NCBI GenBank assembly: GCA_020726025.1
Contig: DYTH01000003.1
Coordinates: forward strand, 1-53,407
From: Syntrophus aciditrophicus
GTDB taxonomy: Bacteria; Desulfobacterota; Syntrophia; Syntrophales; UBA5619
Direction of reading: 5' to 3'
Length of the DNA: 53,407 bases
Shown piece by piece: positions 1 to 24,370 of this stretch. The number at the start of each line of letters is the position of its first letter. Position 1 is the first letter of the stretch. Below the pieces are notes generated by a model. It ran no database searches and was not told where the DNA came from. It saw only the letters and a program-made list of their open reading frames with translations. Position numbers and translations under genes: made by a program.

Positions 1-48
1 AGCACGGAATGACAAAAAGGGGCAAAATCGACTTTTGACGAGTTCATC
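1..48 (-). repeat. Truncated copy of the dispersed MITE-like repeat
   Basis: The reverse complement of these 48 bases matches 21057-21104 with two substitutions by direct reading (46/48). The match covers the terminal inverted repeat of that element and the start of its GTCATTCC hairpin arm. The copy is cut by the window edge, so its other end and any target duplication cannot be seen. Confidence 0.85.
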
Positions 49-301
49 AAGCTTACAAGCAAGCAACTAAACTGAACCGCGTTGATCCTCATCCGCAAAA
101 GCGGGAGGCATTTTGAATTAAATAGACTACGTGAAAAGAACTTTTCCGCTAACAAAAGACGGTTGCTGGATAACAGGCATTTTTTACAATGTCAACAGAA
201 AAAATGAAAAAGTGTGACGCATTTCACAACTGAGTTCACAACAGCGGTTGACGGGTAAGAGGCAGGAACGGCCAACCCCCTCCACGTACATGCATTCGCA
301 C
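49..301. other. Intergenic stretch downstream of the export operon
   Basis: No convincing gene. Reading leftward on the minus strand there is a possible promoter: TTGACA (190-195), a 17-base spacer, and TATCCA (167-172), which would fire away from the SecA-like gene. The -10 is weak. No clear hairpin with a T-tract was found directly after the SecA-like stop codon, so the end of that transcript is unknown. Confidence 0.3.
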
Positions 302-2290
302 CTACATTTCTCCTCCCGACCCGGCGAAGGAAAGGGCTTCCTCCAGCCACGTATCCATCTTCAACACCTCCCGGCGCTGACGGTAAGCGAGCCGCTGGGC
401 GGTTCTCTGCGCCTGGAAAAGCGCGATTCTGGCCAGCACGTCCACACCCGGCGTCTTTCCCTGAAGCGCCGCGGCAAGTCTTTTCCTGAGCAGGGGCGAG
501 ACAAAACGCCGGATCAATTCGTCTTCCACGCTCATGAAGGCCTGGGCGGCGCCAGGGTCTCCCTGTCTCGCGCAACGGCCGAAGAGCTGGCGGTCGATGC
601 GCCCCGATTCATGGCGCTCGGTGGCTATCACATGGAGACCACCCATCTCCGCGACGCCGTGTCCGAGCTTGATGTCGGTGCCTCGTCCGGCCATGTTCGT
701 GGAAATGGTTACCCTCCCCTTTTCACCCGCAGCGGCCACGATCCTCGCTTCCTCGCTGTGGCGGACGGCGTTGAGAAGATTATAGTCGAGACCTCTGGCG
801 GCAAGCATGAGGGCGAGTTTTTCACTGACCGTGACGCTTCTTGTTCCTACAAGCACCGGACGTCCGGTATTCCGCAGCATCTCGATTTCATCGACCACGG
901 CCTCGAACTTCTCCCGCTCCGTGGAAAATATCCGGTCGGGCATGCTTACCCTTATGCAGGGGCGATTGGTAGGAATCGTCATGACAGGGAGGCGGTAAAT
1001 ATGCCAGAACTCCGCAGATGCCTCTTTTGCGGTGCCGGTCATTCCGCTCAATTTCCTGAAAAACCGGAAAAACCTCTGGAAGCTCAGTCTCGCCAGTGTC
1101 TCGCTCGGGTCGTTCACGGTAATGCCTTCCTTTGCCTCGATCGCCTGGTGCAATCCGTGCCGCCATGTCCTGTTCGGCATCAATCTACCGGTAAACTCAT
1201 CGACAATCGCAACCTTGCCGTCCTGGACGACATACTGCTGATCCCGCTTGTAGAACTCCCTTGCCGTCAGAGCCTGCTTTACCAGTTCCTCCCGCCTGGC
1301 CGACCCGCGCCATATTCCATTGAGCATCACCGACTGTTCGTCAACCTTTCGCTCCCCCTCCTTCGTGAGCGAAATCTCCTTATATCGCTGGTTGATTAAA
1401 TAATCCCGACCGGCGTCCAGTGGCTCAACGAGCCGGTGGGTTATTTCGCACGCCTCGACCAGCGAGGAGTTCTTCTGAGGACGGGAGATGATAAGCGGGG
1501 TTACCGCCTCGTCGATCAGGACGCTGTCCGCCTCATCGACAATGGCCGTGTCCAGCCCCCGCAGCACCGTATTGTCGGCGGCTGTCGGGGGACGCAGAAG
1601 CTGGCGGAGCTGCCGTCTTGAAGCGTTGTGCAGCTCTCCGATTATCAGCCTGTCCCGGAGAAAATCGGCCACCAGTTCCTTGAGCGTCGTATAAACAACA
1701 CCTTTCTCATAATTGGCACGCCTATCCTTCGGCTCCATCTGCGAGGTCACACAGCCTACGGAAACACCGCAGAACGAATAAAAGTCCTTCATCTCCAAGG
1801 CATCCCGGTCGGCAAGATAGTCGTTCACCGTGACAAAATGGAAGGGTCGCCCCGTCCAGGCGGCCAGCACCGCCGGCAGACAGGCGGTAAGACTCTTGCC
1901 TTCACCGGTGGCCATCTCGGCAAGGTAGCCGTGGTAGAGGGCGAGCGCCCCCATCACCTGAACCGGATAGGGGAGCATGCCGGTGGTTCGGTTGGACGCC
2001 TCGATCATATACGCCAGGGCCTCGGGCAAAAGCTGGTCAACCTCCTTCCCCCGGCGGCGAAACTCTGTTTGAAGTTCGCCGAGGTTCCCCCTCAGTCTGC
2101 TGTCGGATAAATAAACAAGCTTCCTGGCGTCTTCACTAATTTTGTCCGCATCTGCCTTCAACAAACGGGCGACGGAGGGACGTCGTTTGTTCCACCCCTC
2201 AAACCCGTGGATAAGCGCGTCCATCCCCTGATGGAGCTTTTCAGGAATCACAATGCGGGTACGGTGATAATCCTGGGACGGGACTCTCAT
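302..2290 (-). CDS. Compact SecA-like ATPase of a dedicated export operon
   Basis: A SecA-family motor, 662 aa from the ATG at 2290. Visible motifs: Walker A EMATGEGKS (125-133), TVNDYLADRD (about 154-163), DEAD box VDEADSVLIDEA (251-262), VDEFTGRLMP (363-372), TNMAGRGTDI (531-540) and the arginine-finger region GRCARQGDPG (571-580). Housekeeping SecA is usually about 850-900 aa. This one stops just after the first part of the long scaffold helix and lacks the rest of the C-terminal region, including the zinc-binding tail. The conserved GTNNEFGFDYLRDN stretch of true SecA is replaced by TTLKELVADFLRDRL. It is therefore an accessory paralogue, not the main SecA. The ORF track start at 2512 lies inside the upstream gene; the chosen ATG overlaps that gene's stop codon as TGATG, which implies translational coupling. 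Likely role, by inference: it powers export of the substrate handled by the four upstream envelope proteins. Confidence 0.9.
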   Translation of the reverse strand: MRVPSQDYHRTRIVIPEKLHQGMDALIHGFEGWNKRRPSVARLLKADADKISEDARKLVYLSDSRLRGNLGELQTEFRRRGKEVDQLLPEALAYMIEASNRTTGMLPYPVQVMGALALYHGYLAEMATGEGKSLTACLPAVLAAWTGRPFHFVTVNDYLADRDALEMKDFYSFCGVSVGCVTSQMEPKDRRANYEKGVVYTTLKELVADFLRDRLIIGELHNASRRQLRQLLRPPTAADNTVLRGLDTAIVDEADSVLIDEAVTPLIISRPQKNSSLVEACEITHRLVEPLDAGRDYLINQRYKEISLTKEGERKVDEQSVMLNGIWRGSARREELVKQALTAREFYKRDQQYVVQDGKVAIVDEFTGRLMPNRTWRHGLHQAIEAKEGITVNDPSETLARLSFQRFFRFFRKLSGMTGTAKEASAEFWHIYRLPVMTIPTNRPCIRVSMPDRIFSTEREKFEAVVDEIEMLRNTGRPVLVGTRSVTVSEKLALMLAARGLDYNLLNAVRHSEEARIVAAAGEKGRVTISTNMAGRGTDIKLGHGVAEMGGLHVIATERHESGRIDRQLFGRCARQGDPGAAQAFMSVEDELIRRFVSPLLRKRLAAALQGKTPGVDVLARIALFQAQRTAQRLAYRQRREVLKMDTWLEEALSFAGSGGEM

Positions 2291-4446
2291 CAAAGCTGGT
2301 ACCTCTTCTGCAACATCTGGCGGAACAGATGGCCCCACTGGAAAAGCAGCGGCCGTGGCTTGAGGGTGAAACGGAGTTTCCCCGACATTCCATGCAGCAG
2401 TAGTACTTCCGGCGTCGGCACGATATCGGCATAAATCTGGAAAAAAGGCTCGGAGGCCCGGGTACCGGTTTCGTCTTTCACGGAGACGGCAAGGTCCCCG
2501 CCTCCCCGCCATCCCAGCGCGGCGGAGGGCAATTTCTCCTGCCGATAAGGAATGATCCGGAATTTCGATACGGCAAGATTTGTCTCGCCCTGCCCGTATA
2601 TCCTCACCTCGACTTTGCTAATACCGCCGACGAAAAGTTCCGCAGCCTCATCCTGGGAGACAACCGCCGAAAAGCGGAAGGAGCGCTCATTAACGATCTG
2701 TCCTATCACGCCCCCCCTGTCCAGCCAGGAACCGACCAGGTCGTTTATCCTGGGGGCCACCCAGATTCCCGCTTCTCTTGCCCTTACGGTGAGAGAAGCC
2801 CGTTGGAGTTCCAGATCCTTAAGTTTCGCGTCAATGGACTCAAGACGTTTTTGAAGCGGCTCAAGATCGGCGGTTTCCTTGTTGAGCGCCTTGAGAATGA
2901 GCGCCTCAGTTTCTTTCTTTTGGCCGATTACCGCCTCAGTTTCCAGTTCGAGCTCGCGGTCATGCATCTCCAGAAGCGCCATACCGGGGCTCACCTGTCG
3001 GCCCGAAGGAACGATCACCTTTTTCAGGTAGCCGGGGGCGTCGTTCACCACCTGGACGTACTGCATCGTTTCCATCACGCCCGGGGCGCGAAATCTGTCG
3101 GGAAACGGGATAAGGGCAAGAAAAAGAACCAGAAGCGAGAGGAACCCCGCAGAAACGAGGACGGCCCTCATTCTCGTCCGGGCCAGACGGGGGTTCGTGG
3201 AAAGGTAAATGAAAAACTTGTAAAGAGGAACCACCACCCAGGTCACGACGCCGATCAGCGCCATGATCATCCCGGCGAGCAGAAACTTGTCCGCTACGAA
3301 AAAGATGATCCCCGAAAAGACGATGACCCGGTAAATACCGCTCAGAATCGCGAAGATGGTCAGATAAACGGTTTCCCTGCGCCCCTGCGCCGGGCTGAAT
3401 GACTCCTTGTAGCCGAAGGCATACCTTTCCACGAGATGGCGGAGGTGCTTCATCGCCCGCGAGCTGAGGTTAGGAATGTCAAGTAAATCCGAGAGTATGT
3501 AGTAGCCGTCAAAGCGCAGAAGCGGGTTTCCGTTGAACAGGACAGTCGAGACGGAGGCAATGAACATGATGTTGTAGGCGAGGCTGTGGAGGGTCCCCTC
3601 CCCGGAGTAGGCCCAGACAAACGTGGCGATCGCCGCCACGAAAATCTCCATGATCATTCCGGCGGCGCCGACAAGCGCCCTCTCCCAACGGCTCCGGAAG
3701 GCCCAGCTCGATGTCGCGTCCATGTACGGCAACGGGGTAAAAACCAGCAGCATCACACCCATCGTATGCACCTCTCCGCCATAGCGGCGGCACACCAGGG
3801 CATGACCGAACTCGTGAATCGTCTTGACGACGATCAGCCCCAGATACAGCAGAAAGAGGTTGTCCGGGGCAAGTATCCCCTGCACCTGATCGAAGGCCAT
3901 ATCGAAACGATCCACTACCAGCTTGATCGCCCAGCCTGTTGAAACAAGCCACAACAGCGCCCCCAGCGGCGAGATAAGCAGCCGGAAAATCGGCATCAAC
4001 TGTTTAAGGAGATTATCAGGATCGAAAAGGGGCAGCCGCATGAACAGAATACTCATGAGTTTCGACTGCATCTCCCGCTGGCGGCGCTTCCGGTAACGCT
4101 CGAAAAGCTTGGCGCTGTCCGCAGGTTTTTCGAAATGGAGAAGGTTGGCGAAATAGAGCTGGGTCAGCAACTGAATCACGTCTTCCTGTCCCGGCGCGTT
4201 GTCGGGATCCCGATTGAGGCACTCCTCCCAGACTTCCGAGACGGTACGATCCGACCGGAGCCGGATCACGAAATCGTGCGCCTCCGACCGCAGACGAAAG
4301 AACTGGTTGTTAAAGGGGTCGCGGAACATGTACCATATCTCGCCGCGAAAGCGCCTTTTGCTTACCTGGACGGACGGGTGGAGGCTGACCTTGAGATCTG
4401 CCACGCGATACCACGACTCACTGAATGTTTTTCCAGCCTTTTGCAT
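2290..4446 (-). CDS. PqqD-like / M50 site-2-type protease / HlyD-like fusion protein
   Basis: A 718-aa membrane protein. Residues about 14-105 resemble the PqqD winged-helix fold: a strand-rich start, FFRLRSEAHDFV, a TVSEVW turn and two helices ending LLTQLYFANLL. PqqD folds bind leader peptides in RiPP systems. Several membrane segments follow, with the zinc-protease motif HEFGH at 211-215 and the second-site motif NPLLRFDGYY near 307-316, both intact, so protease activity is plausible. After the last membrane helix (about 440-460) comes a periplasmic adaptor-like part: half of a lipoyl domain (GYLKKVIVPSGRQV), a coiled-coil hairpin, and the other half. The start chosen is the ATG at 4446, one base after the stop of the preceding gene; the track start (4536) would overlap that gene by about 90 bases. 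A known architecture class is peptidase M50 with biotin/lipoyl attachment; its combination with SecA is the odd part. Confidence 0.85.
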   Translation of the reverse strand: MQKAGKTFSESWYRVADLKVSLHPSVQVSKRRFRGEIWYMFRDPFNNQFFRLRSEAHDFVIRLRSDRTVSEVWEECLNRDPDNAPGQEDVIQLLTQLYFANLLHFEKPADSAKLFERYRKRRQREMQSKLMSILFMRLPLFDPDNLLKQLMPIFRLLISPLGALLWLVSTGWAIKLVVDRFDMAFDQVQGILAPDNLFLLYLGLIVVKTIHEFGHALVCRRYGGEVHTMGVMLLVFTPLPYMDATSSWAFRSRWERALVGAAGMIMEIFVAAIATFVWAYSGEGTLHSLAYNIMFIASVSTVLFNGNPLLRFDGYYILSDLLDIPNLSSRAMKHLRHLVERYAFGYKESFSPAQGRRETVYLTIFAILSGIYRVIVFSGIIFFVADKFLLAGMIMALIGVVTWVVVPLYKFFIYLSTNPRLARTRMRAVLVSAGFLSLLVLFLALIPFPDRFRAPGVMETMQYVQVVNDAPGYLKKVIVPSGRQVSPGMALLEMHDRELELETEAVIGQKKETEALILKALNKETADLEPLQKRLESIDAKLKDLELQRASLTVRAREAGIWVAPRINDLVGSWLDRGGVIGQIVNERSFRFSAVVSQDEAAELFVGGISKVEVRIYGQGETNLAVSKFRIIPYRQEKLPSAALGWRGGGDLAVSVKDETGTRASEPFFQIYADIVPTPEVLLLHGMSGKLRFTLKPRPLLFQWGHLFRQMLQKRYQL

Positions 4447-4447
4447 A

Positions 4448-6304
4448 TCACCACCACAAAAGGATGCGGAGGAAGTCGATGGTCCTGTGAGCGAAAATCC
4501 AGAGGATGTTCCTCTTGCCGACGTTGATTTTCGCAACCCCGCTCATCCCGGGACGCCACCACGTCTCGGGTTTATCCGGAAGCAGGGCGCGGGCAAGATA
4601 GACGTTCCTTTCGTCTTGCGTGACGGCCACCGGATCCACGCGGTCAACCCGCACCGGAAATTTCAGATCCGGCCTCCCCACAAAGGCTATCTCACCGGCG
4701 CTTTTCACGGCTACTTCGTGAACGTCCCGTTCGTCAACCTTCATCTCGACGTACATATTTCCAAGTCGGGCCACCTTGAAAAGGATGTCTCCCTTTTTCA
4801 CCGGCGCGCCCAACAACTCTTTAAGGTCTCCCTCGACGACAATACCTTCAAAAGGCGCCCTCACGTCTGCATGATTCAGATGGTAGTGCACCATCTTGAG
4901 ACGGGCATCCGCCTGTTCTTCAAGCGCACGGGCGACCTTCATATCGGCCAGCGCCTTCTGGGCATAAGCCTTGGCGGCCTCCCTGACGTAACGGTTCTGA
5001 TTTGCCACCGCCGTCGCTTCCTCAAGAAGCAACTCGCGGGTGTCCAGTGAAAGGAGCGGACTCTCTTTCCTGACGCGGTCGCCTATCTTTACGTGCACCT
5101 GGTGAATATAACCATCAAAAGGCGCCGGAAGATACGAAAGATCATCCGTTTTCAAAATGAAAGGCGCCTCGACGCGGTACTCCATCTTTCCAAAAATCAA
5201 AACCGCCAGGGCGATTGCGACCAGAACGCCCAGCAACTTGGCGAAGGTGTGTTCAACACCGAGAAGTTTGCCCAGCGCCTCCCGCACAGAAGCAAAAATT
5301 CGCGCCCCGAACCAGCGGTCAAGACGTTTCAGGTCTCCGAGACGACGTGCCGCCTGGTCGCAGAAGACGCGCAGACCCCGGACATCCTCTTCAGAAAATG
5401 GTTCCTCGGAGCGCTCACAGGTAAGCACCGCCTCCGGATTGTCGTCAAGTCGGAGCGTAAGCGATGCGAGGTACCGCGCCCCCTGCTCCCGGGAATACTT
5501 TTCGTGGTCGCGGACAACCGAAAGAGCACCCTCCGGACGGGGCCAGATGATCTCCTCGTCCTGGTCAAGCGCCTCTTCCATCGCCGCCTCGATGGCCTGA
5601 ACTGCCGTCATTTTCTTCTCGAACTTCTCGATATGGCTGATAGCCTGCACCCGGACATAGCCGTCCTGCACCCAGCCAAGACTGACTCGATCGCATCGAT
5701 AGCGGGAGGCGATCTCGTTGCAGAAGGTCATCGCTGCGGCAACGTATCTTTTTTCGGCATTGAGAAGCACCATCAGGTCGAGCGCTTCGGAAAACTTCGC
5801 CACGTCGTTTCGGGCGCGGACAACCACATTTCCCAACTGGTAAACCGAGGGAGTGTCCGCAACCAGCTCAAGGCGGGTTTTGGCCTCAACAGCGGAGATA
5901 CGGGCGCCCTGGGAGATCAAAAACGTGGCAGCGCTGTTCCTTGCGTCTTCAGTTACAAGCTTGACCGCCACGACAAGACCTTCGGCGGGGATCGGCCCTT
6001 CCCATCCGACTGGTTCAGTGACAAACCCTTCACTCATCGCCATACCAGCCGCCAGCTCCATCCTTTTTATTATGTCGGCGCTTTTGGAAACCTTCACGGC
6101 GGGGTCCTGCCAGAGGGAAAGCTTTCGCCAGCCTTCGTTATTTTCCTGACGGAGAAGCAGCAACCCCATGTCCGCCTCTACCAGTCTCGCCGCCTCTTCG
6201 AGAAAGGCTGGCCAGAATTCGGAGGGGGCTCCAGTGAAGCGGCGAATCTGCGTTATCCTCTTCCCGACAGCTTCTCTGTGTTCACTTTCTTTTACGTTTT
6301 CCAT
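4448..6304 (-). CDS. GAF-domain / membrane helix / HlyD-like adaptor fusion
   Basis: 618 aa. The N-terminal half appears cytoplasmic: a degenerate GAF-like segment (about 25-135), a linker, then a clearer GAF-like domain (about 175-325, from LLNAEKRYVAAAMTFCNEIA to FCDQAARRLGD). One membrane helix follows (about 355-372). The C-terminal part is a periplasmic adaptor: lipoyl half YLPAPFDGYIHQVHVKIGD, a helical hairpin with many Ala/Lys/Glu, the second half DVRAPFEGIVVEGD, and a beta-barrel region. A further hydrophobic, Trp-rich tail (ILWIFAHRTIDFLRILLWW) ends the protein. GAF domains normally bind small molecules or mediate dimerisation, so the fusion could gate export by a cytoplasmic signal; this is inference. 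A short ribosome-binding site (AGGA) precedes the ATG. The gene sits 70 bases after the hlyD-like gene and one base before the M50 gene. Confidence 0.85.
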   Translation of the reverse strand: MENVKESEHREAVGKRITQIRRFTGAPSEFWPAFLEEAARLVEADMGLLLLRQENNEGWRKLSLWQDPAVKVSKSADIIKRMELAAGMAMSEGFVTEPVGWEGPIPAEGLVVAVKLVTEDARNSAATFLISQGARISAVEAKTRLELVADTPSVYQLGNVVVRARNDVAKFSEALDLMVLLNAEKRYVAAAMTFCNEIASRYRCDRVSLGWVQDGYVRVQAISHIEKFEKKMTAVQAIEAAMEEALDQDEEIIWPRPEGALSVVRDHEKYSREQGARYLASLTLRLDDNPEAVLTCERSEEPFSEEDVRGLRVFCDQAARRLGDLKRLDRWFGARIFASVREALGKLLGVEHTFAKLLGVLVAIALAVLIFGKMEYRVEAPFILKTDDLSYLPAPFDGYIHQVHVKIGDRVRKESPLLSLDTRELLLEEATAVANQNRYVREAAKAYAQKALADMKVARALEEQADARLKMVHYHLNHADVRAPFEGIVVEGDLKELLGAPVKKGDILFKVARLGNMYVEMKVDERDVHEVAVKSAGEIAFVGRPDLKFPVRVDRVDPVAVTQDERNVYLARALLPDKPETWWRPGMSGVAKINVGKRNILWIFAHRTIDFLRILLWW

Positions 6305-6374: not shown

Positions 6375-7253
6375 TCATCTTCCTAATAGCAGGAAACCGG
6401 CTACGCCAGGTCTCACCACACCGTCTTTGTTGTCAAATTCAACTTTTACCTCAAGCAGTCCACTCGCAGGATCGACCACAGGGGAGACAAACACCGTCTT
6501 ACCCTTGATAGGCATCGCGCTTTTTCCCGTGTTAATCTTGAGATTGACCATCTGGCCTGTGTGGAGACTTCGTCCGATCCATTCTTCCACGTTACAGACA
6601 AAAATGGACCGGCTGGTATCCACGAGGTGAACAAGGGGTTGATTCACTTCGACCCCCTCACCCTCATCAAAAAACAGTTTGATTACAGTACCGTCGATCG
6701 GCGATGCAAGACTTCTTCGGGAAAGGGCCTCAATGGCCATCCGGTACTCAATCTCCTCCCGTTCTTCCTGAGCTGTCAGCCGTTTCTGCTCGGCCACGGC
6801 CAGGTCGTACTCCAGCTTTAACTTCTCAAGTTCTTCCCGGCTTACCGAGGCGGTTGTATTGAAAAGCTCCTGATTCGAGTCCAAAATCCACTTGAGTGTT
6901 CGTACCCGGAATGCAGCCGCTTCCAACTCGGATGTGGCGTCCCGAATGAGTTTTCTTCTTTCGGTTTCCAGTTCATCCAGTTGTTTTTCCATCTCCAGAA
7001 GAACGGTTCCTTTGCTGACAACATCCCCTTCCCTGACGAGGATTTCAGAAACCACGCCGGCCATCGTTGCACTCAAATTGACATCCCGAAAGGGCTCCGT
7101 GATCCCGGCGACTGATATCCCCTCACCCGCCCGCACCATACACGGGAAAAACAGCGCGACAATCAGAAAAAACGTAATTCCAACAATCGCGGGAATCCGC
7201 ACCTTCCGGTGCGGCCTCACTTTCGGTTTGTTGTTGAGATGTATCATGGTCAT
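6375..7253 (-). CDS. HlyD-family periplasmic adaptor protein
   Basis: 292 aa. An N-terminal membrane anchor or signal segment (about 20-42) is followed by a classical adaptor layout: a first lipoyl half with SATMAGVVSEILVREGDVV, a coiled-coil hairpin rich in Glu/Leu/Lys (about 90-165), the second lipoyl half SPIDGTVIKLFFDEGEGV, and a beta-barrel ending LRPG-like as VRPGVAGFLLLGR. Such proteins bridge an inner-membrane transporter and a TolC channel. The ATG at 7253 overlaps the stop of the TolC-like gene by four bases (ATGA), so both belong to one transcript. A second in-frame ATG at 7247 is possible. It is one of three adaptor-domain proteins in this operon, and no ABC or RND pump is encoded here. 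Confidence 0.88.
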   Translation of the reverse strand: MTMIHLNNKPKVRPHRKVRIPAIVGITFFLIVALFFPCMVRAGEGISVAGITEPFRDVNLSATMAGVVSEILVREGDVVSKGTVLLEMEKQLDELETERRKLIRDATSELEAAAFRVRTLKWILDSNQELFNTTASVSREELEKLKLEYDLAVAEQKRLTAQEEREEIEYRMAIEALSRRSLASPIDGTVIKLFFDEGEGVEVNQPLVHLVDTSRSIFVCNVEEWIGRSLHTGQMVNLKINTGKSAMPIKGKTVFVSPVVDPASGLLEVKVEFDNKDGVVRPGVAGFLLLGR

Positions 7254-8926
7254 TGTCGTTCGACCTCCTTGATTTCTACTCCTCTGTTCATCAGCAGAGC
7301 CCCTTCCGCCAAATCAAGCTGGTGGAGAGCTTTCATGAATTTGACAAGGGTTTCCGCCTCGCCCTCCCGTGCGTTGATCAGATTTTGCTCCCGTTCAAAC
7401 AGCATCCGGCTGTTGCTTTTTCCAATACGGAATCTTTCCGTTTCCGTATCGAGCAGTTTTCTGGTCATCTCGACAACCCCTGATTGTTCTTTGACCTGTT
7501 CCAGACTATTGTCCACATTCCGCAACGCGGTCTCAATAGAATTGGCGAGGGAGACTTCCACTGCCTTTACCTCCAGCAAAACCTGACGTCTGCGTTGCAA
7601 CGCGGCTGCATGTTCGCTCGAAGCCTTTTTATTCCCCCCCAACGGTATTTTTAATTCAAGTCCGACCATCCAGGATGGATGCTTCGCCTTCGTCGCGTCG
7701 TTGAATGGATCGGCGTATCTGTCGGTCAGTCCATTCAAGAAGTAACTGCCCTTCAAGTCAATTTGCGGCCATAACTGGTTTTTGGCATAGGCAAGCCGGA
7801 CATCCTCACGTTCGACTTTTTTTCGTACCGCCAGATACTCGCCGCGGAGTTTAAAAGATCGGTTGAGACTCTCTGCAAAATCTCGGTGGGTAACCTCTAT
7901 CGACGGACGATCCACTGTTTCGATCTCTTCTCCTGCCAGAGCCACTGAGGTGGAAAGGAATGTTCGAACCATGTTCATGGCGGCCACCACGGCCTGTTTA
8001 GCCTCGCTGACCAGCGACCGGCGGGCGGCGAGCGCTGCTTTGGCCTCGATAACCTCGGTCTCGGCCATTTTTCCCGTCTTGAGCCGGACAAAATTGTCAT
8101 GAAGAATTTTTTCGGCAGTCCGCGCCGAATCCCGACGCAGCAATAATTTTTCACGGGCGAGAAACAGATCCCAGTAAGCGGACATCGCCTCGGCAACCAC
8201 CCGCATGGCCTGCATCCGGTAGTTCTGGAAGGCGATGTCCCTATCCGCTTCGGCAATGCGTATCGGCGCCATTGTCGGCGCAACACCGGCATCTTTCAGA
8301 AGTGGCTGGCTGATGCTGGCCCCGAGCGTTGTCTGTTTGTACTTGTCGAATCCGTAGCCTTCATTCACGCTATCGGAAAAATCACGGTACGAATATGCCA
8401 GCTTGACCCTCCCGCCTACCGGGAGCAGTTCCTCGACGGCAAGTTGCTGGCTGTAACTGTCTTCCCAGAACTCCGGCAGAACAAAACCTCCGTTATTGAA
8501 AGTTGACATCATCTGTTGGGCGGTATTTTTTCTTTTATCGTACTGGAGCTGATAAGTCCCGAGCATCACAGGTTCAAAAACAGCCTTCGCGCCCCTGACA
8601 GCCTCACGGGTAACCGCCCACTCCGCATCTTGAAACGCGATCTGCTCGTTGTTTCTCATGACGCTGACGACATAGTCGTTCAAACTGACCAAAAGAGTTC
8701 GGGGAACCTTTGTGACTTGCGACGGCTTTCCGGCAATCCCGGCGACAGATTCTTTCGGTGATCCTTTCATCTCATCCGCTGCCGTAATGATTCCGGGGAA
8801 GCCCATACAAATCATTGCGGCAATCAGACAATGAGCAAATCGTCCCATCCCGGGGACGCTCCGTGATACGGCTCCGCTTCTATTTGCGGGCAAACGCCCC
8901 GATCGTAAAGACAAACCATCGCTCAT
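7250..8926 (-). CDS. TolC-family outer-membrane channel protein
   Basis: About 558 aa and first gene of the export operon. The body has the alternating long helices and short strand regions of outer-membrane efflux proteins, including internally repeated segments such as ISQPLLKDAG (about 190-205) and a LKIPLGG strand in the second half. TolC-type trimers form a channel across the outer membrane. I chose the ATG at 8926 because GGTGGAG lies about 8 bases upstream; the track ATG at 8944 has only a poorly spaced AAGG. A signal-peptide-like stretch begins at an internal Met (MGRFAHCLIAAMICMG), so the true start may even be there, about 25 codons later. The three downstream genes overlap or nearly touch, supporting one operon. 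Confidence 0.88.
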   Translation of the reverse strand: MSDGLSLRSGRLPANRSGAVSRSVPGMGRFAHCLIAAMICMGFPGIITAADEMKGSPKESVAGIAGKPSQVTKVPRTLLVSLNDYVVSVMRNNEQIAFQDAEWAVTREAVRGAKAVFEPVMLGTYQLQYDKRKNTAQQMMSTFNNGGFVLPEFWEDSYSQQLAVEELLPVGGRVKLAYSYRDFSDSVNEGYGFDKYKQTTLGASISQPLLKDAGVAPTMAPIRIAEADRDIAFQNYRMQAMRVVAEAMSAYWDLFLAREKLLLRRDSARTAEKILHDNFVRLKTGKMAETEVIEAKAALAARRSLVSEAKQAVVAAMNMVRTFLSTSVALAGEEIETVDRPSIEVTHRDFAESLNRSFKLRGEYLAVRKKVEREDVRLAYAKNQLWPQIDLKGSYFLNGLTDRYADPFNDATKAKHPSWMVGLELKIPLGGNKKASSEHAAALQRRRQVLLEVKAVEVSLANSIETALRNVDNSLEQVKEQSGVVEMTRKLLDTETERFRIGKSNSRMLFEREQNLINAREGEAETLVKFMKALHQLDLAEGALLMNRGVEIKEVERQ

Positions 8927-9202
8927 AAGATACTCCACCACCATCCTTTATTCATGTTATTCCGAAGAACCAACGATCATCGGAAGATAAGGACATTACA
9001 GGTCAACGACGCATCCCTGCTGTTTTCTGACATGAGCGTGTCGTCGATCTGCTTATGCAATCCGAATCCAGCTGCGCATGACAGGCCAATCTGTAAAGCC
9101 CGTGAAGGAAACGGCCCTGGTGGCAAGTCCAACCATGGCCGCCCGCGAAACACGCGTAAATCTATATGTGAAAAAGAAATGGTTGTCAATAGAAGGACCC
9201 AC

Positions 9203-11363: not shown

Positions 11364-11435
11364 ATGGCTGGGCCTTCGCTTCGAAAATATTGTAACCAGA
11401 CGCAAATCAGCAGGGTAAAAAGCAGGCGACTCCCG

Positions 11436-13211
11436 ATGGGAACAATTCCACGACAAAATAAAACATTTTTGATCTGCGCACTCCTTTCTCTGGCAGTCCT
11501 TGTCGTCTTCCGGCAGACGCTCACTTTCGATTTCATCGATTATGACGACGCGTTGTATGTCGTAAAAAACCCCTCTCTTCTCTATGGATTGACCAAAGAG
11601 GGGTTGGCGTGGGCCGCAGGCTCGCTGTACGCCGCGAACTGGCACCCCCTGACGCTGCTTTCTTTTCTGGTTGATTACGAGCTGTACGGCATGAATCCGG
11701 GCGGGTATCACCTGACAAACACGCTCATTCACCTTCTCGGCGGCCTGTTTTTGTTTTTCGCCTTCCGGGAGATGACCGGAAATAGCTGGAAAAGCTGCCT
11801 CGTTGCGGCAATTTTTCTTCTCCATCCCCTCCATGTGGAACCAGTCGCCTCGGTGGCGGGGCGAAAGGATGTTTTAAGCGGTTTTTTCTGGGCGCTGACG
11901 ATTCTCGCCTATGCCCGCTACACGAGAAAACCTGTTTTATGGGCTTATTTATTGACATGTTTCTTTTTTATCCTCGGGCTTATGTCAAAGGCGACCGTGG
12001 TTACACTGCCCCTCGTCCTTCTTCTCCTCGATTACTGGCCATTGAACCGATTTAACGAAATTTCCGAAGAACATTCAGCGCCTTTCGATAACCGTTTATT
12101 CTTCCCGAAGGCATCCCCTGCGCGACTGCTGACAGAGAAGATACCCTTCCTGCTTCTATCTGGCGTTGCGGGCCTGCTGACCTGGAAGGCCCAAACCGGC
12201 GCCGCGGCAATCGCCCCGCTGTTCGAGCTTGATTTCACCACCCGCGTCGGCAACGTGGCCCATTCCTTTCTCATGTACATCGGAAAGACCATCCGGCCGG
12301 TTGATCTTTCCTTCTTCTACCCGTATCATCCAGCCGGTAAAACCGGCTGGATTCTTCCGGCTGTGCTGCTTTTTACGGCCGTCGGCGCCCTCGGCCTGCG
12401 TCTGAGAAAATCCGCCCCCTGGTTTATCGTCGGCTGGCTGTGGTTTGTCCTGACGATGCTGCCGACAATCGGAATTGTCCAGGCAGGCTCGCAGTCCATG
12501 GCGGATCGTTACACCTATATCCCCATGATCGGCCTTTCCGTCATTGCCGTGTGGGGCAGCGGCATCTACAAACCATCCCGAAAGGGCAACATGATATTTG
12601 CCGCAACCTGGCTTGTCGTTTTATCGCTGCTTATCGCCGACAGCAAATGCCAGACAACATACTGGCAGAACAGCCGCACCCTTTTTGAACACGCGCTTTC
12701 CACAACAGAGGGCAATTATCTTGCCCACAATAATCTGGGGGCGTTCTTTATGAAACAGAATCAATACGATTCGGCCGAACGCCATTTTCGCGAGGCGCTG
12801 CGGATTAAGCCCGGCTATGCCGATGCGGGAATCAATCTGGCGCAGATTATGCTCATAAAAGGTAAAACCGTCGAAGCCGAGACCTCGTTTCGCAATGTAC
12901 TGAACTTCCATCCCGATAACGACCGCGCCAGAAGACTGCTCTGCGATTTCCTGCTGACAACGGGAAAAAACAGGGAGGCGATTGTGTGCTATGATAAGGC
13001 CGCAGCGGCAAGCCCCGACAATCCGGAACTGCAAAACAACCTCGCTGTGGCGCTCGCGGGAAACAACCAGATCGATGAGGCGATTATTCATCTCGAACGG
13101 GCGCTGCGCCTGCAACCGGGCTTCAAGGACGCAAAGAGAAATCTCGACCTGCTCCGGACGAAAAATGAAACCACCGGCAAAAAGACAGCCGCTTCCCCGA
13201 AAACCCCCTGA
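11436..13211 (+). CDS. TMTC-like GT-C membrane glycosyltransferase with C-terminal TPRs
   Basis: 591 aa from the ATG at 11436. The N-terminal two thirds is multi-pass membrane protein with features of the TMTC/O-mannosyltransferase-like family: a DYDDALYV acidic motif in the first outer loop, NWHPLTLLSFLVDYELYG, and HPLHVEPVASVAGRKDVLSG. The C-terminal 160 residues hold about four TPR units (for example NLGAFFMKQNQYDSAERHF and NLAVALAGNNQIDEAI). Such proteins transfer a lipid-linked sugar to acceptor proteins on the outer face of the inner membrane; the sugar and target are unknown. The track start at 11364 sits directly on the pilA terminator and lacks a ribosome-binding site, so the later ATG is preferred, although its own site (AGGCGA) is weak. 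The product is paralogous to the protein at 15060-16703. Confidence 0.8.
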   Translation: MGTIPRQNKTFLICALLSLAVLVVFRQTLTFDFIDYDDALYVVKNPSLLYGLTKEGLAWAAGSLYAANWHPLTLLSFLVDYELYGMNPGGYHLTNTLIHLLGGLFLFFAFREMTGNSWKSCLVAAIFLLHPLHVEPVASVAGRKDVLSGFFWALTILAYARYTRKPVLWAYLLTCFFFILGLMSKATVVTLPLVLLLLDYWPLNRFNEISEEHSAPFDNRLFFPKASPARLLTEKIPFLLLSGVAGLLTWKAQTGAAAIAPLFELDFTTRVGNVAHSFLMYIGKTIRPVDLSFFYPYHPAGKTGWILPAVLLFTAVGALGLRLRKSAPWFIVGWLWFVLTMLPTIGIVQAGSQSMADRYTYIPMIGLSVIAVWGSGIYKPSRKGNMIFAATWLVVLSLLIADSKCQTTYWQNSRTLFEHALSTTEGNYLAHNNLGAFFMKQNQYDSAERHFREALRIKPGYADAGINLAQIMLIKGKTVEAETSFRNVLNFHPDNDRARRLLCDFLLTTGKNREAIVCYDKAAAASPDNPELQNNLAVALAGNNQIDEAIIHLERALRLQPGFKDAKRNLDLLRTKNETTGKKTAASPKTP

Positions 13212-13253
13212 TCGCCGCAACAGCGGCAAACATACCAAAAGGCGTGATTCCTT

Positions 13254-14981
13254 ATGGACAAACAAGAGACGACAGTGCCAGACAGAAAAAGAAACCTTGC
13301 GCTGCTTGCGGTTTTTGCGGCTTCCGCAGCGATAAAATCCGCCATCTGCATTCTTGCGACCGATCCGATCATATTCAACAAATATCCATATTTTGCCCAG
13401 AAGCTGAGCTCAGGGGCGGATATCGGCGAAAGAATCCTCGATCTGAGCCCGCTTTACCTCTTTCTCGTTACGATATTTTTTGAAATTTTCGGCCCCAACT
13501 GGGATATTCTGACGGCGCTGCAGATAATCCTCGGCAGTTTCAATTGCGTCATCGTGGGGCTTGTCGGGACAAGACTATTCAACCCGGCGGTCGGGATACT
13601 CTCCGCACTCATCCTCATGCTTTACGGAAACATGACCCTGATCGAATGCGCCATCGAGCCGGAGGGCCTCTTTGTTTTCCTCAATTCACTGACGGTTCTT
13701 GCCCTGCTGTGGGCCGCCGGTGATAAAACATCGCCACCGCACCCGGCAAAATGGCTCCCCGGGGGGATATTGATTGGTCTTGCGGCTGTCGCAAAGGCGA
13801 ATGCGCTTTTGATAATCCCCGGCGCGGCCGTCTGGATATGGCTATCCACGAAGGAAAGACGCATCCGGTCTTTGACGCTGCTTCTTCTGGGGGCAGCGCT
13901 CGTAATTGCTCCGGTAACAATCAGGAATTTCTGTCTGTTTGACGATTTTGTCCTTTTGACCGCCGACGGCGGCAAGGTGTTTTTTCATGGCAACGGCCCC
14001 GGCGCAACCGGCATGGAAAGGGCGGACATGCCCGACCAGGGCCTTATCGAAGAGGGGCAAACCGAGCCTGATTACGCCCATGCACTGTTCCGTCAAAAGG
14101 CCCGCGAGGCGACAAAGACCAGCCTCAAACCATCGGAATGTTCATCTTACTGGTTTTCACAAACCCAAAGGCATCTACTCGCCGCTCCAAAGGCCGCACT
14201 TTCCGGTTTTCTGAAGAAATTCCTTCTATTCTGGAACAATTACGAGGTGCACGACCTCGATACAACCTATAAGAGCTATAAAATAATCGGGAAATGGCCG
14301 TTTCTTACTGCGGGGATAATTGCCGCCGCGGGCATCCTCGGCATGATCTTTTCCGCAGGCATGCTCAGGCGGTTTTTTCTTTTGTACTGGATGGTTGCGA
14401 TATACATCGTTTCGGTCGTTGTCTTTTTTGCCGCTTCGCGTTACCGCCTGCCCGCCTTCAATTTTCTCGCAATCTTTGCCGCTGGTTTTCTGTATGAACT
14501 GTACGTTGCCATCAGCGGCAAAAAGCTTGAAAAAACCATCGTCGCCTTTCTGTTGATCCTGGTTTTCCTGGCATTCACCCACCTGCCCTTACGTGACGAA
14601 ATCAGAAAATACGACCTCTGGCAACACATTTCCCGGATAGATTACAGCCTCGGCGGAAGAATGCTGTTCAAAAAAGGAAATTTCCCGGAAGCAGCCCGTG
14701 AATTTGAGAAGGTTGTTTCTGCGGCCCCCGATTTTGTTCCGGCAGTCAACTACCTCGGCAAGACCTGCGCCATTCTCGGCAACTACGACTGCGCGTCGGA
14801 CTGTTTCCGGAAAGTCATCCGGTTAGCGCCCGCTTCCGACGAGGGCTACCTGAATGCCGGCCTTCTGCTTGAACTCCGGGGAAATAAAAGGGAGGCAAGG
14901 CGCTATTTTGAAAAAGCGCAGGCGTTAAACCCCAGAAACGTAAAGACCAGAGATCATCTGAACACCATAAGCCGCGAATGA
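13254..14981 (+). CDS. GT-C (PMT/ArnT-like) membrane glycosyltransferase with TPR tail
   Basis: 575 aa. The first 430 residues contain roughly ten hydrophobic helices with the layout of glycosyltransferase family 39-like GT-C enzymes: a first loop carrying acidic residues (ERILDLSPLYLFL), then an EPEGLF segment and a cluster of Arg/Lys-flanked helices. The C-terminal 110 residues form about three TPR units (MLFKKGNFPEAAREFEKVV, NYLGKTCAILGNYDCASDCF, NAGLLLELRGNKREARRYFEKA). It starts 42 bases after the previous gene and likely shares its transcript. The reaction is expected to be sugar transfer from a polyprenyl-phosphate carrier; substrate and acceptor cannot be read from the sequence. Assignment to the superfamily is firm from topology and TPR architecture, but the exact subfamily is not. 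Confidence 0.75.
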   Translation: MDKQETTVPDRKRNLALLAVFAASAAIKSAICILATDPIIFNKYPYFAQKLSSGADIGERILDLSPLYLFLVTIFFEIFGPNWDILTALQIILGSFNCVIVGLVGTRLFNPAVGILSALILMLYGNMTLIECAIEPEGLFVFLNSLTVLALLWAAGDKTSPPHPAKWLPGGILIGLAAVAKANALLIIPGAAVWIWLSTKERRIRSLTLLLLGAALVIAPVTIRNFCLFDDFVLLTADGGKVFFHGNGPGATGMERADMPDQGLIEEGQTEPDYAHALFRQKAREATKTSLKPSECSSYWFSQTQRHLLAAPKAALSGFLKKFLLFWNNYEVHDLDTTYKSYKIIGKWPFLTAGIIAAAGILGMIFSAGMLRRFFLLYWMVAIYIVSVVVFFAASRYRLPAFNFLAIFAAGFLYELYVAISGKKLEKTIVAFLLILVFLAFTHLPLRDEIRKYDLWQHISRIDYSLGGRMLFKKGNFPEAAREFEKVVSAAPDFVPAVNYLGKTCAILGNYDCASDCFRKVIRLAPASDEGYLNAGLLLELRGNKREARRYFEKAQALNPRNVKTRDHLNTISRE

Positions 14982-15059
14982 TTGCCGCCCGTCGCCATTT
15001 GACTATTAGCAGCGCTCAGGATAAGAGGCTGCCCGACAAAGAACAGTGAGCCCGTTGAG

Positions 15060-16703
15060 ATGGACGATATGAAGGCAAAACCCGAAGATGAGCAAAAAGT
15101 TACCTTGATGCGGCTGGCGATCATGGCTGGTCTGGCGTTTCTTGTTATCTCCGTGTATTGGCCTGCGGCATGGTTTGATTTTATCGAACTGGACGACAAC
15201 CTCTACCTCCTCGAAAATCCGAATATTAAAATGGGGCTGTCGCCGGCGGGAATCAAATGGGCTTTTACCACCTTCCATACAACAAACTGGCATCCCCTGA
15301 CGTGGATTTTGCTGCTTGCCGAATTCAGCCTCTCTGGCCTCAATCCGGCAGGTTTTCACATTGTCGGCGTCCTTCTGCACATTATTAATACGGCGTTGCT
15401 TTTTCTGGTCATGGTGCGGATAACGGGCGGGAAATGGAAGGCAATGGCCGCAGCGGCCCTGTTTGCCGTTCACCCCATGAATATCGAATCCGTGGCATGG
15501 ATCGCGGAGCAAAAGAATCTCCTCAGCACGCTGTTCTGGTTTCTGACGATATTGGCCTATCTGCGTTATGCCAAAAAACCTGGGCCGTCAATTTATCTGG
15601 CAACGCTCGGGCTTTTTGCGCTGGGTCTGATGGCCAAACCGATGCTGGTGAGTCTTCCCTTCATTCTGCTGCTTTTCGATTACTGGCCGCTCGGCCGTCT
15701 TTACCCCGTTCATTTTGTCGAAGGCGCGGAGGCCAACAAAAAAACGGGCATAAAAAAACTGCTAATCGAAAAAATCCCGTTTTTCTCCCTGGCGTTTTTT
15801 TCCGTCCTGCTGACGCTTTACGCGGCCCATGCCGGCGGCGCCATGAAATCACTTGAGACGTTTCCTCTTTACGGTCGCATGGCAAACGCACTGCTCTCCT
15901 ATTCGGCCTACGTTGCCATGCTGCTCTGGCCGTTTGATCTTTCCATCTTTTACCCGCATTCCTCCTTAAAGCCGCTCGGAGACATTTCCGCCGCCTTTTT
16001 CGCCCTATCGGCGACATCCGGGCTGGTTGTATGGAAAGGCTCGAAATACCGATATCTTACGGTCGGATGGCTCTGGTATCTGGTAACGCTTCTGCCGGTC
16101 ATCGGGCTCGTCCAGGTCGGTTTCCAGGAGATGGCCAATCGGTACATGTACGTCCCGTCTATCGGCATTTTTTTGATTTTTGCAATGGGACTTCCGGATA
16201 TCGCAAAACGGTTCAGTAAGATGAAACCCTTTCTGCCGGCGCTGATGGCCCTCCCGGTTGTACTTTTTACCGTCAGCTCGGCTTTTGAGCTTCCCCACTG
16301 GCAAAACACCGAAACGGCATTTACGAGGGCGCTGGAGGTTACAAAAGACAATCATGTCGCCCTGCTCGGCCTCGGCAATCTCTACCAGAAAAAAGGGGAT
16401 ATCAAGGCGGCAGAGACGCATTTCCGCGCGGCCCTCCGTGTAAAGCCGGATTACGCGGAGGCGCACAACAACCTTGCCGTGCTCCTGATGCGAAGCAATC
16501 GCGGCAAGGAGGCGGAGTTCCACCTGCGGGAGGCGATAAGGCATCTCCCGCGTGCGGCCAGGTCCCACAACAACCTTGGCGCCCTGCTCGCCGGACAGGG
16601 AAGATTGCAGGAGGCGCGCCCCTGCTTTGAAAAGGCGCTTGAGATAAACCCGGATTACGCGGAGGCCCGTGCGAACCTCTCTTTGTTACTGGCGGGCAAA
16701 TAG
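15060..16703 (+). CDS. Second TMTC-like GT-C glycosyltransferase with TPRs
   Basis: 547 aa, clearly paralogous to the product of 11436-13211. Shared landmarks in the same order are FIELDDNLYLLENP versus FIDYDDALYVVKNP, NWHPLTW versus NWHPLTL, HPMNIESVAWIAEQKNLLS versus HPLHVEPVASVAGRKDVLS, and LLLFDYWPLGRL versus LLLLDYWPLNRF. Three TPR units end the protein (about 430-545). Family proteins are integral inner-membrane glycosyltransferases whose TPR part faces the acceptor side. An ATG at 15060 is used; a second ATG lies three codons later (15069). There is a 78-base gap from the preceding gene. The pair probably arose by duplication followed by insertion of the PMT-like gene between the copies. 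Confidence 0.8.
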   Translation: MDDMKAKPEDEQKVTLMRLAIMAGLAFLVISVYWPAAWFDFIELDDNLYLLENPNIKMGLSPAGIKWAFTTFHTTNWHPLTWILLLAEFSLSGLNPAGFHIVGVLLHIINTALLFLVMVRITGGKWKAMAAAALFAVHPMNIESVAWIAEQKNLLSTLFWFLTILAYLRYAKKPGPSIYLATLGLFALGLMAKPMLVSLPFILLLFDYWPLGRLYPVHFVEGAEANKKTGIKKLLIEKIPFFSLAFFSVLLTLYAAHAGGAMKSLETFPLYGRMANALLSYSAYVAMLLWPFDLSIFYPHSSLKPLGDISAAFFALSATSGLVVWKGSKYRYLTVGWLWYLVTLLPVIGLVQVGFQEMANRYMYVPSIGIFLIFAMGLPDIAKRFSKMKPFLPALMALPVVLFTVSSAFELPHWQNTETAFTRALEVTKDNHVALLGLGNLYQKKGDIKAAETHFRAALRVKPDYAEAHNNLAVLLMRSNRGKEAEFHLREAIRHLPRAARSHNNLGALLAGQGRLQEARPCFEKALEINPDYAEARANLSLLLAGK

Positions 16704-16787
16704 TTTTCAAATTCATTGAGGACGACGACAATCTCTCTTTTTCGAAAATCGCAAACTCGAGCTGGAACTCTTGCTGAAAGGGATAAC

Positions 16788-18821: not shown

Positions 18822-19050
18822 CGTCGCGTCTCTTATTTTGCATGACGATCCCGCCCTTGCCCACGGCAGGCGCGTCTTACAGTCTGTTTAGCTTCAGAAG
18901 GCGCAACACGAGGAAAATCATGACCACGGCAAAAAAGACGGCAAACGACGCGAAACCCGATACTTAACGGCGCTGTTTACAAAAGTCGCGGGTTGATGCA
19001 TGCAACGTGAAAAATAAAAGCGACCTCTTTAAAATGATATAGAGAAAACC

Positions 19051-23365: not shown

Positions 23366-24370
23366 ATGAGAAAACTTGCCGCAATCAGGAAGGTTGACGA
23401 GATACGGCCGATCGAGGGCGCCGATGCGATTGAGCTTGCCGTCTTCGGCGGCTGGCAGGTGGTCGTCAGAAAGGCGCAGGAAATAAGGCCGGGCATGGCC
23501 GTCGTCTATTGCGAGATCGATTCTGTCTTTCCCGAGGAAAAGCGCTATGAATTCCTGCGCCAGGACAAGTTTCGCCTGAGGAGCAAGAAGTTTCGCGGCG
23601 CCCTGTCGCAGGGGGTAGTTTTCAGGATCGACGAGGCGCTGCCGCCCGGCAGGTATGAAGATGGCGACGATGTTACTGAAATTCTTGGCATCACTCTCTA
23701 TGAACCGCCGATACCCGCGGCCATCGCGGGCGATATCGCTGCCCCCTATCCGGGGCATGTCCCGAAAACAGACGAGGAGCGGGCGCAAAATCTCGATCTC
23801 GCCGCCTTCTCCGGGATTCCCTTTTTTGTCACGGAAAAGCTCGACGGCACATCGGCGTCATTCATCCTCGACGAGGCGGGTTTTCACGTCTGCGGCAGGA
23901 ACTGGGAGTTTCGGAACACGCCCGGCCAGACCTTCTGCAAGCTTGCCGCCGATTATGACGTCGAGGCGCGGCTGCGCGACTTCCATGACCGGACGGGGAG
24001 CTATCTCGCGCTGCAGGGCGAGGTCGTCGGCAACGGCATCCAGTCCAACACTTACGCCTTGAAAGGACAGGATATCTTTATTTTCAACATCTTCGACATT
24101 GGCCGACAGCGCTGGTTATCCGCCCGCGCCTACCGCGCCCTGCTCGACGACTTCGGCCTCAAAGGGGTTCCCATTGTCGAAGAGAGTCTTTCGATCGACG
24201 GCCTTGACCACGCCCAACTGCTCGCCTTTGCCGAAGGCAGGTCGCTCCTCAACCCGCAGGCTGAGCGCGAGGGGGTGGTTTTCCGTTCCGTTTCCGTAAC
24301 GGAGTCCGGTCAGGGGAAAATATCCTTCAAGGCGATCTCCAACCGCTACCTGCTGAAGCACGGCGGATGA
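23366..24370 (+). CDS. DraRnl-type (Rnl5) RNA ligase
   Basis: 334 aa, close to the length of Deinococcus radiodurans DraRnl. The N-terminal 110 residues look like the family's OB-fold domain (AVFGGWQVVVRKAQEIRPGM, YCEIDSVFPEE). The nucleotidyltransferase part has the adenylation motif EKLDGTS with Lys158 as the AMP acceptor, then RNWEFRNT, LQGEVVGNGIQSN (motif IIIa-like), EGVVFRS (motif IV) and KISFKAIS (motif V). These ligases seal 3'-OH/5'-phosphate breaks in RNA strands of duplexes using ATP. AGAGGGGGAG lies before the ATG. The gene stands alone between a toxin-antitoxin island and a repeat. MazF- or RelE-type toxins cut RNA, so a repair role is tempting but unproven. Confidence 0.9.
   Translation: MRKLAAIRKVDEIRPIEGADAIELAVFGGWQVVVRKAQEIRPGMAVVYCEIDSVFPEEKRYEFLRQDKFRLRSKKFRGALSQGVVFRIDEALPPGRYEDGDDVTEILGITLYEPPIPAAIAGDIAAPYPGHVPKTDEERAQNLDLAAFSGIPFFVTEKLDGTSASFILDEAGFHVCGRNWEFRNTPGQTFCKLAADYDVEARLRDFHDRTGSYLALQGEVVGNGIQSNTYALKGQDIFIFNIFDIGRQRWLSARAYRALLDDFGLKGVPIVEESLSIDGLDHAQLLAFAEGRSLLNPQAEREGVVFRSVSVTESGQGKISFKAISNRYLLKHGG

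What the first reader, a model, noticed from the sequence alone, without database searches (positions are those of the whole stretch)
302..2290. Compact SecA paralogue lacking the C-terminal scaffold and zinc tail
All ATPase motifs are present but the protein ends after the start of the scaffold helix, and the conserved GTNNEFGFDYLRDN stretch is replaced. This suggests a motor that no longer docks on SecYEG/SecB in the usual way.
Basis: partly seen in the sequence, partly recalled or inferred. Interest (0 to 1): 0.7.

Follow-up and report, generated by a model that had tools for sequence, protein, structure and literature searches.

The report
SecA-type motor for exporting giant proteins

Summary
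It is a SecA with all motor motifs and the preprotein-binding domain. It ends at the start of the scaffold helix with its own conserved tail (LSFSGxxE). The same genome has a full-length SecA with a zinc tail and a single SecY. Twelve compact SecAs from four phyla form one group (100/100) at constant length, so this is no truncation. The family and its operon (TolC, adaptor, GAF-adaptor, M50-adaptor, SecA) were described in 2015 ('secondary SecA_DEAD', PMC4452313), role 'completely unknown'. New here is the likely cargo: giant proteins with an N-terminal LEPR-XLL motif and no Sec signal peptide. In 395 genomes of the phylum, all 10 with a strong M50 marker carry LEPR, as do 2 more in which compact SecA was found on checking; only 4 weak LEPR hits lie outside. 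In at least 15 loci the giant gene abuts the operon. In the same-genus genome its frame opens 244 bp after SecA; its orthologue here sits at the end of contig C5. Best reading: an ABC-free, type-I-like export machine powered by SecA. Substrate link likely; independence from SecY inferred.

The parts
302..2290 (-). Compact SecA-type motor (662 aa): NBD1, preprotein-binding domain and NBD2; ends at the start of the scaffold helix with the family's conserved C-terminal tail
2290..4446 (-). PqqD-like N-terminal domain + M50 (site-2-protease) membrane core with HExxH (H211 E212 H215) and D313 invariant + periplasmic adaptor (MacA/MexA-like) C-terminal half, 718 aa; overlaps the SecA start by 1 base
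4448..6304 (-). GAF domain + one hydrophobic stretch + HlyD/adaptor domain (618 aa)
6375..7253 (-). Periplasmic adaptor (RND_mfp type, 292 aa)
7250..8944 (-). TolC-type outer-membrane channel (564 aa)
1..301 (-). Start of the intergenic stretch after secA; the contig breaks here. In the same-genus genome the giant LEPR-XLL frame opens on the same strand 244 bp after secA; its orthologue (80% nt) lies at the end of contig C5 of this genome

Best explanation
The compact SecA is the cytoplasmic ATPase of a dedicated, ABC-transporter-free secretion machine whose cargo is giant, RTX/Ig/LamG-type surface proteins carrying an N-terminal LEPR-XLL motif instead of a Sec signal peptide. Proposed steps: (1) the LEPR-bearing N-terminus of the giant protein is recognised in the cytoplasm, plausibly by the PqqD-like domain of the M50 protein and/or the SecA preprotein clamp [inferred]; (2) SecA, lacking its two-helix finger, wing and zinc tail, feeds the unfolded chain by ATP-driven clamp movements [inferred from intact motor motifs] into a membrane assembly built around the M50-adaptor protein instead of, or in addition to, SecYEG [inferred]; (3) the M50 site, whose catalytic residues are invariant, trims or releases the leader [inferred]; (4) the adaptor proteins and TolC carry the chain outside [homology]; the GAF-adaptor senses a signal and gates [inferred]. 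Shown here: motor anatomy, operon, conserved tail, and co-occurrence and adjacency with the giant genes.
For: Motor and truncation. Operon with TolC, adaptors and an M50-adaptor, with no ABC gene in it. Separate group of compact SecAs: (100/100). LEPR-XLL genes in this genome. Order level: LEPR in 4 of 5 genomes with compact SecA and 0 of 56 without (Fisher p=1e-5). Phylum level: LEPR in 10 of 10 strong-M50 genomes against 6 of 385 others (p=4e-16). Two of those six, G140 and G193, also have a compact SecA; the other four LEPR hits are weak (E 8e-4 to 0.01), and in them the A1 profile met only long (848-911 aa) SecA frames. Adjacency: giant gene, DUF3467, GAF-adaptor, M50, SecA in G211 (15,080 aa), G415 (10,562), G307 (9,795), Pontibrevibacter (10,603), Sinorhizobium, Ensifer, Rhizobium, Mesorhizobium, Methylosinus and others (DUF3467 not in all); giant gene downstream of SecA in G001, G438 and G146. 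The giant N-termini that could be read have no signal-peptide-like hydrophobic core. PqqD hits in 10 of 15 M50 proteins.
Against: No experiment. Association does not prove transport. Fisher tests are not corrected for relatedness (the 10 genomes span 8 families), and M50 rather than SecA was the marker in most genomes. SecYEG could still be the pore: each tested genome has a SecY. G027 has the operon but no LEPR hit (its contig ends close upstream). A few weak LEPR hits lie in genomes without the system. In the window genome the giant gene is on another contig, so adjacency there is inferred from G001.
Confidence: 0.68

Rival explanations
1. The compact SecA still drives translocation through the ordinary SecYEG channel (a 'SecA2-only' arrangement), and the adaptors and TolC merely take the periplasmic intermediate across the outer membrane.
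For: Each tested genome has exactly one SecY, and SecA2-only systems in Gram-positives share SecYEG (stated in PMC4452313). The preprotein-binding domain is intact.
Against: The two-helix finger, wing and scaffold that touch SecY in solved complexes (own knowledge) are missing in every family member read. The giant N-termini read lack a Sec signal-peptide core. Every operon brings its own multi-pass membrane protein fused to an adaptor.
Confidence: 0.22
2. The SecA-like ATPase is not the pump but an unfoldase or chaperone that keeps the giant cargo unfolded or feeds its leader to the M50 protease, while another transporter supplies the channel.
For: The M50 partner has invariant catalytic residues and a PqqD-like domain; SecA can bind unfolded chains on its own (own knowledge).
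Against: No ABC or other pump is in the window operon, and the gene set is otherwise a complete export conduit.
Confidence: 0.08
3. A broken or frameshifted secA fragment without function.
For: The protein is about 180 aa shorter than canonical SecA.
Against: Homologues at 40-81% identity have the same length and a conserved C-terminal tail; coding pattern intact (third-position GC 0.71); a second, full-length secA exists.
Confidence: 0.01

Closest known systems
Secondary SecA_DEAD domain proteins and their T1SS-like locus (Kamneva, Poudel and Ward 2015, PMC4452313)
   Same: Extra SecA_DEAD protein lacking SecA_SW; neighbours with weak M50, GAF+HlyD, HlyD and sometimes OEP domains; [quoted passage not shown] separate clade.
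   Different: That paper names no cargo and calls the role completely unknown; its text holds no mention of giant, LEPR, PqqD or DUF3467. Here: cargo link to giant LEPR-XLL proteins, M50 catalytic residues invariant, PqqD-like domain, conserved SecA tail.
Canonical SecA (SecA1)
   Same: DEAD motor, preprotein-binding domain, second motor domain, about 44% identity.
   Different: No scaffold, wing, two-helix finger or zinc tail; LRDN changed to LRDR; below NCBI's SecA cut-off (630 against 800 bits).
SecA2 of Gram-positive accessory Sec systems
   Same: Second SecA beside the housekeeping one, serving special cargo.
   Different: SecA2 keeps a C-domain and the accessory system can bring SecY2; here there is one SecY and adaptor/TolC partners; scores far below the SecA2 cut-offs.
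Type I secretion (HlyBD-TolC, LapBCE, SiiCDF) of giant RTX adhesins
   Same: Adaptor plus TolC conduit, giant RTX/Ig-type cargo.
   Different: No ABC transporter in the operon; SecA and an M50-adaptor fusion take its place; the shared cargo motif is N-terminal.
E. coli SecA N68 (5k9t), an engineered C-terminal truncation
   Same: About the same domain content as the natural compact SecA.
   Different: N68 is a laboratory fragment; the compact SecA is natural and has its own conserved tail.

Membership tests
Secondary SecA_DEAD family (PMC4452313) | SecA_DEAD present, SecA_SW absent or only a fragment | tested here: met
Secondary SecA_DEAD family (PMC4452313) | Encoded beside M50-like, GAF+HlyD and HlyD proteins (sometimes OEP) | tested here: met
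   all of these plus TolC in one operon
Secondary SecA_DEAD family (PMC4452313) | Present in addition to a canonical SecA | tested here: met
   full-length SecA on C133
Secondary SecA_DEAD family (PMC4452313) | Falls in the published clade | tested here: inconclusive
   One group of 12 compact SecAs at 100/100; the paper's own sequences were not in the tree
Canonical SecA | Scaffold, wing and two-helix finger | tested here: not met
Canonical SecA | NCBIfam SecA equivalog score (TIGR00963, 800 bits) | tested here: not met
   630 bits
SecA2 accessory Sec | Second SecY or Asp neighbours; SecA2 equivalog score | tested here: not met
   One SecY; TIGR03714 521 against 930 bits; no such neighbours
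Type I secretion system | Periplasmic adaptor and TolC channel | tested here: met
Type I secretion system | ABC transporter with the locus | tested here: not met
   None among the operon genes of the window; genome-wide ABC genes not surveyed
Type I secretion system | C-terminal uncleaved secretion signal on cargo | tested here: inconclusive
   RTX repeats near some giant C-termini; a shared C-terminal motif only in the DUF3467-bearing subgroup
LEPR-XLL giant proteins (NF012209) | LEPR-8K motif above cut-off near the N-terminus of very large ORFs | tested here: met
   C5 (29.7 bits) and C86 (28.4 bits) of this genome; cut-off 17; both ORFs are cut by contig ends or gaps, so full size not seen here

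The most novel reading that the evidence does not exclude
A distinct kind of bacterial secretion system: a SecA motor without SecYEG-docking parts, working on a membrane pore formed by a PqqD/site-2-protease/adaptor fusion and exiting through TolC, exports single polypeptides of up to about 15,000 residues tagged by an N-terminal LEPR-XLL leader.
Probability: 0.4. Interest if true: 0.88.

Novelty: new member of a known kind. Interest (0 to 1): 0.64.

Why it matters
How bacteria export proteins of ten thousand residues and more is poorly understood, and the 2015 locus had no known cargo. The correspondence found here gives both a partner, and gives an N-terminal motif to mutate. It also connects two published loose ends: in Methylobacterium extorquens AM1 the secondary SecA locus is META1p2399-2402 (PMC4452313) and the 15,831-residue RTX protein is META1_2412 (PMC2680597), ten locus numbers away; I found no sign that either paper connects them, and I did not inspect that locus. 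If correct, SecA motors are not bound to SecY, and genes now labelled 'DEAD/DEAH box helicase', 'prepilin peptidase' or 'PqqD family peptide modification chaperone' can be re-annotated as parts of an export machine.

Tried and rejected
Frameshift or pseudogene: rejected (conserved length and tail). Gram-positive-type SecA2/SecY2: rejected. Loading the whole genome into Python: not available. A shared C-terminal signal for all giant cargo: only a subgroup shows one, not the alphaproteobacteria, and the window lineage's giant C-terminus was not available. DUF3467 as a universal component: rejected, absent from this genome and its same-genus relative. Phages as carriers: the search gave only matches below 60% identity in records from hosts such as Listeria and Staphylococcus; none was inspected.

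Full report
WHAT IS THERE. The ORF lies on the minus strand, 2290 down to 302 (ATG to TAG, 662 aa). The plus-strand translation over the same coordinates is broken by stops. It is the last gene of a tightly packed operon: tolC (8944-7250), an RND-type adaptor (7253-6375), a GAF+HlyD adaptor (6304-4448), an M50+HlyD protein (4446-2290) and the SecA-like gene (2290-302). Neighbouring genes overlap by up to 4 bases or are separated by at most 70.

THE MOTOR. Pfam finds SecA_DEAD, SecA_PP_bind and P-loop_SecA but no scaffold/wing domain. The best solved relative is B. subtilis SecA, matched over chain residues 38-607. In an alignment with the genome's own SecA, relatives' SecAs and a Lactobacillus SecA2, every ATPase motif is kept (TGEGKS, TVNDYLA, DEADSVLIDEA, NMAGRGTDIKLG and the ERHESxRIDRQL/GRxxRQG block). 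GTNNEFGFDYLRDN reads TTLKELVADFLRDR; in the wider family it is mostly CTNKELVFDYLRDR, so the change LRDN to LRDR is a family trait. The protein stops where the scaffold helix begins and carries a short tail of its own, roughly D-x-x-L-x-x-x-L-S/A-F-S/T-G-x-x-E, seen in nearly all homologues down to 40% identity. An AlphaFold model (pLDDT 62) matches SecA structures and the engineered N68 fragment.

PARALOGUE, NOT FRAGMENT. The genome (2.16 Mb, 149 contigs, about 92% complete) has a full-length SecA on C133, with the CPCGSG zinc tail, and one SecY. Among 61 genomes of the order only five have the compact form: this one, a same-genus genome (81% identity) and three more distant ones. A maximum-likelihood tree puts 12 compact SecAs from Thermodesulfobacteriota, Nitrospirota, Verrucomicrobiota and Alphaproteobacteria in one group (100/100), with long branches noted. 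The scattered distribution fits horizontal transfer, one of the two options given in the 2015 paper.

THE PARTNER MEMBRANE PROTEIN. The M50 protein has three parts: an N-terminal stretch with PqqD hits in 10 of 15 members (weak, best E 5e-4); a hydrophobic core with HExxH and N-x-NPL-x-x-x-D, these residues being invariant in 19 sequences; and a C-terminal half that matches MacA/MexA adaptors by sequence and fold. PqqD-like domains are known to hold leader peptides in peptide-modifying enzymes (own knowledge). So this one protein could bind a leader, cut it and join the periplasmic conduit; that is inference.

THE CARGO. On alphaproteobacterial plasmids the gene set lies beside huge genes: 26.5 kb in Methylosinus, 31.6 kb in Mesorhizobium, 38.8 kb in Pseudosulfitobacter and 31.8 kb in Pontibrevibacter. 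The last two are annotated LEPR-XLL; the first two begin with ...FDTLEPRVLLNAD and ...FEALEPRLLLSAD. The window's own genome has two LEPR-XLL N-termini near contig ends (C5, C86). Testing the same 61 relatives for the motif gave exactly four genomes, all among the five with a compact SecA. In 395 genomes across the phylum, the ten with a strong M50 match (E at most 1e-200) all carry LEPR, against 6 of 385 others. Two of those six (G140, G193) proved on direct search to have compact SecAs with the family tail; the other four LEPR hits are weak, and in those genomes the profile matched only long SecA frames. The 14 control genomes gave no LEPR hit at the same threshold.

GENE ORDER. In G211 the order is giant gene (15,080-aa frame), two DUF3467 genes, GAF-adaptor, M50, SecA; G415, G307, G386, G259 and G263 agree, with one or two DUF3467 genes (for G263 and G259 the LEPR start lies on another contig). 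Ensifer, Sinorhizobium, two Rhizobium, Mesorhizobium, Methylosinus, Pseudosulfitobacter, Pontibrevibacter and Rhodobacteraceae M382 show the same neighbourhood with a giant gene upstream. In G001, G438 and G146 the giant gene instead follows SecA. In G001 its frame opens 244 bp after SecA; its first 430 or so bases are 80% identical to the end of contig C5 of the window genome, and a short inverted match links the C5 end and the window start. The window contig therefore most likely breaks just before its giant gene. A verrucomicrobial locus (L009) has a variant (MEQRLLLSA) on an open frame of at least 2,308 aa.

FEATURES OF THE CARGO. The N-termini that could be read are mostly basic and lack a signal-peptide-like hydrophobic core (best 15-residue hydropathy 0.8-1.75), whereas a 19-residue scan of operon proteins flags the TolC and adaptor N-terminal signal regions (the two scans are not identical in design). 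C-terminal parts carry RTX repeats, LamG, Ig and cadherin domains. In the DUF3467-bearing Thermodesulfobacteriota-type subgroup the giant proteins share a C-terminal motif ending in R-K/R-F-x-K/R-W.

WHAT IS KNOWN. Kamneva, Poudel and Ward (2015, PMC4452313) described these SecA proteins and their T1SS-like neighbourhood, suggested that SecA supplies ATPase activity and that the M50 protein forms the pore, and called the role completely unknown. Their text has no mention of giant, LEPR, PqqD or DUF3467. My searches of the open-access library found no paper joining LEPR-XLL to SecA; subscription papers and preprints were not searchable. In M. extorquens AM1 the SecA locus (META1p2399-2402) and a 15,831-residue RTX protein (META1_2412; PMC2680597) are near neighbours by locus number.

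VERDICT. The gene itself is a member of a known family. The co-occurrence and adjacency data give that family a likely cargo, which I rate the valuable part. That the motor moves the chain, and does so without SecY, is inferred. Limits: the statistics ignore relatedness, the marker in most genomes was M50, several giant genes are cut by contig ends, and nothing was tested at the bench.

Noticed in passing
G000 contig C86, 7610-11143 (L023): A second LEPR-XLL N-terminus on its own contig, so this organism may have two giant cargo proteins for one export operon.
   Followed up: partly
window 1-54 and the end of contig C5 (L022): A short inverted match (25 bases, 88%) between the window start and the end of C5 suggests that a dispersed, palindrome-like repeat broke the assembly between secA and the giant gene.
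   Followed up: partly
L103, L104, L105, L109, L110, L062 (ends of giant genes): Giant proteins of the DUF3467-bearing subgroup share a C-terminal motif ending in R-K/R-F-x-K/R-W, a possible second targeting signal or anchor; not seen in the alphaproteobacteria.
   Followed up: partly
DUF3467 genes beside the operon (L103, L106, L110, L122): A small protein of unknown function sits between the giant gene and the GAF-adaptor in many loci, sometimes in two copies; a chaperone role is a guess.
   Followed up: partly
G156, G160, G163, G365, G437: A more distant M50-adaptor paralogue (HELSH/HEFAH in the two read) occurs in genomes where only long SecAs were found; some of these have LEPRIMFDA- or LEERIVLDA-type N-termini, perhaps a sister system.
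   Followed up: partly
window 4448-6304: The GAF-adaptor appears to have a cytoplasmic GAF domain tied through one hydrophobic stretch to a periplasmic adaptor, which could let a cytoplasmic signal gate the conduit.
   Followed up: no
window 11364-20988: Five successive large proteins with PMT_2-type glycosyltransferase domains, three of them with TPR repeats; possibly a glycosylation block near the secretion operon.
   Followed up: no
window 23366-24370: An RNA ligase with a PHA02142-type OB fold, next to a ribbon-helix-helix protein on the other strand.
   Followed up: no
plasmid records NZ_AP022333.1, NZ_CP085155.1, NZ_CP049813.1, NZ_CP088148.1: Compact SecAs are annotated as 'prepilin peptidase' or 'DEAD/DEAH box helicase', and M50-adaptors as 'PqqD family' proteins; these look like misleading names.
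   Followed up: partly
Rhizobium johnstonii plasmid NZ_CP140822.1, 1-5413 (L125): An apparently decaying copy of the set: M50 frame intact, SecA only partly matched, no giant gene in the 49 kb read.
   Followed up: no
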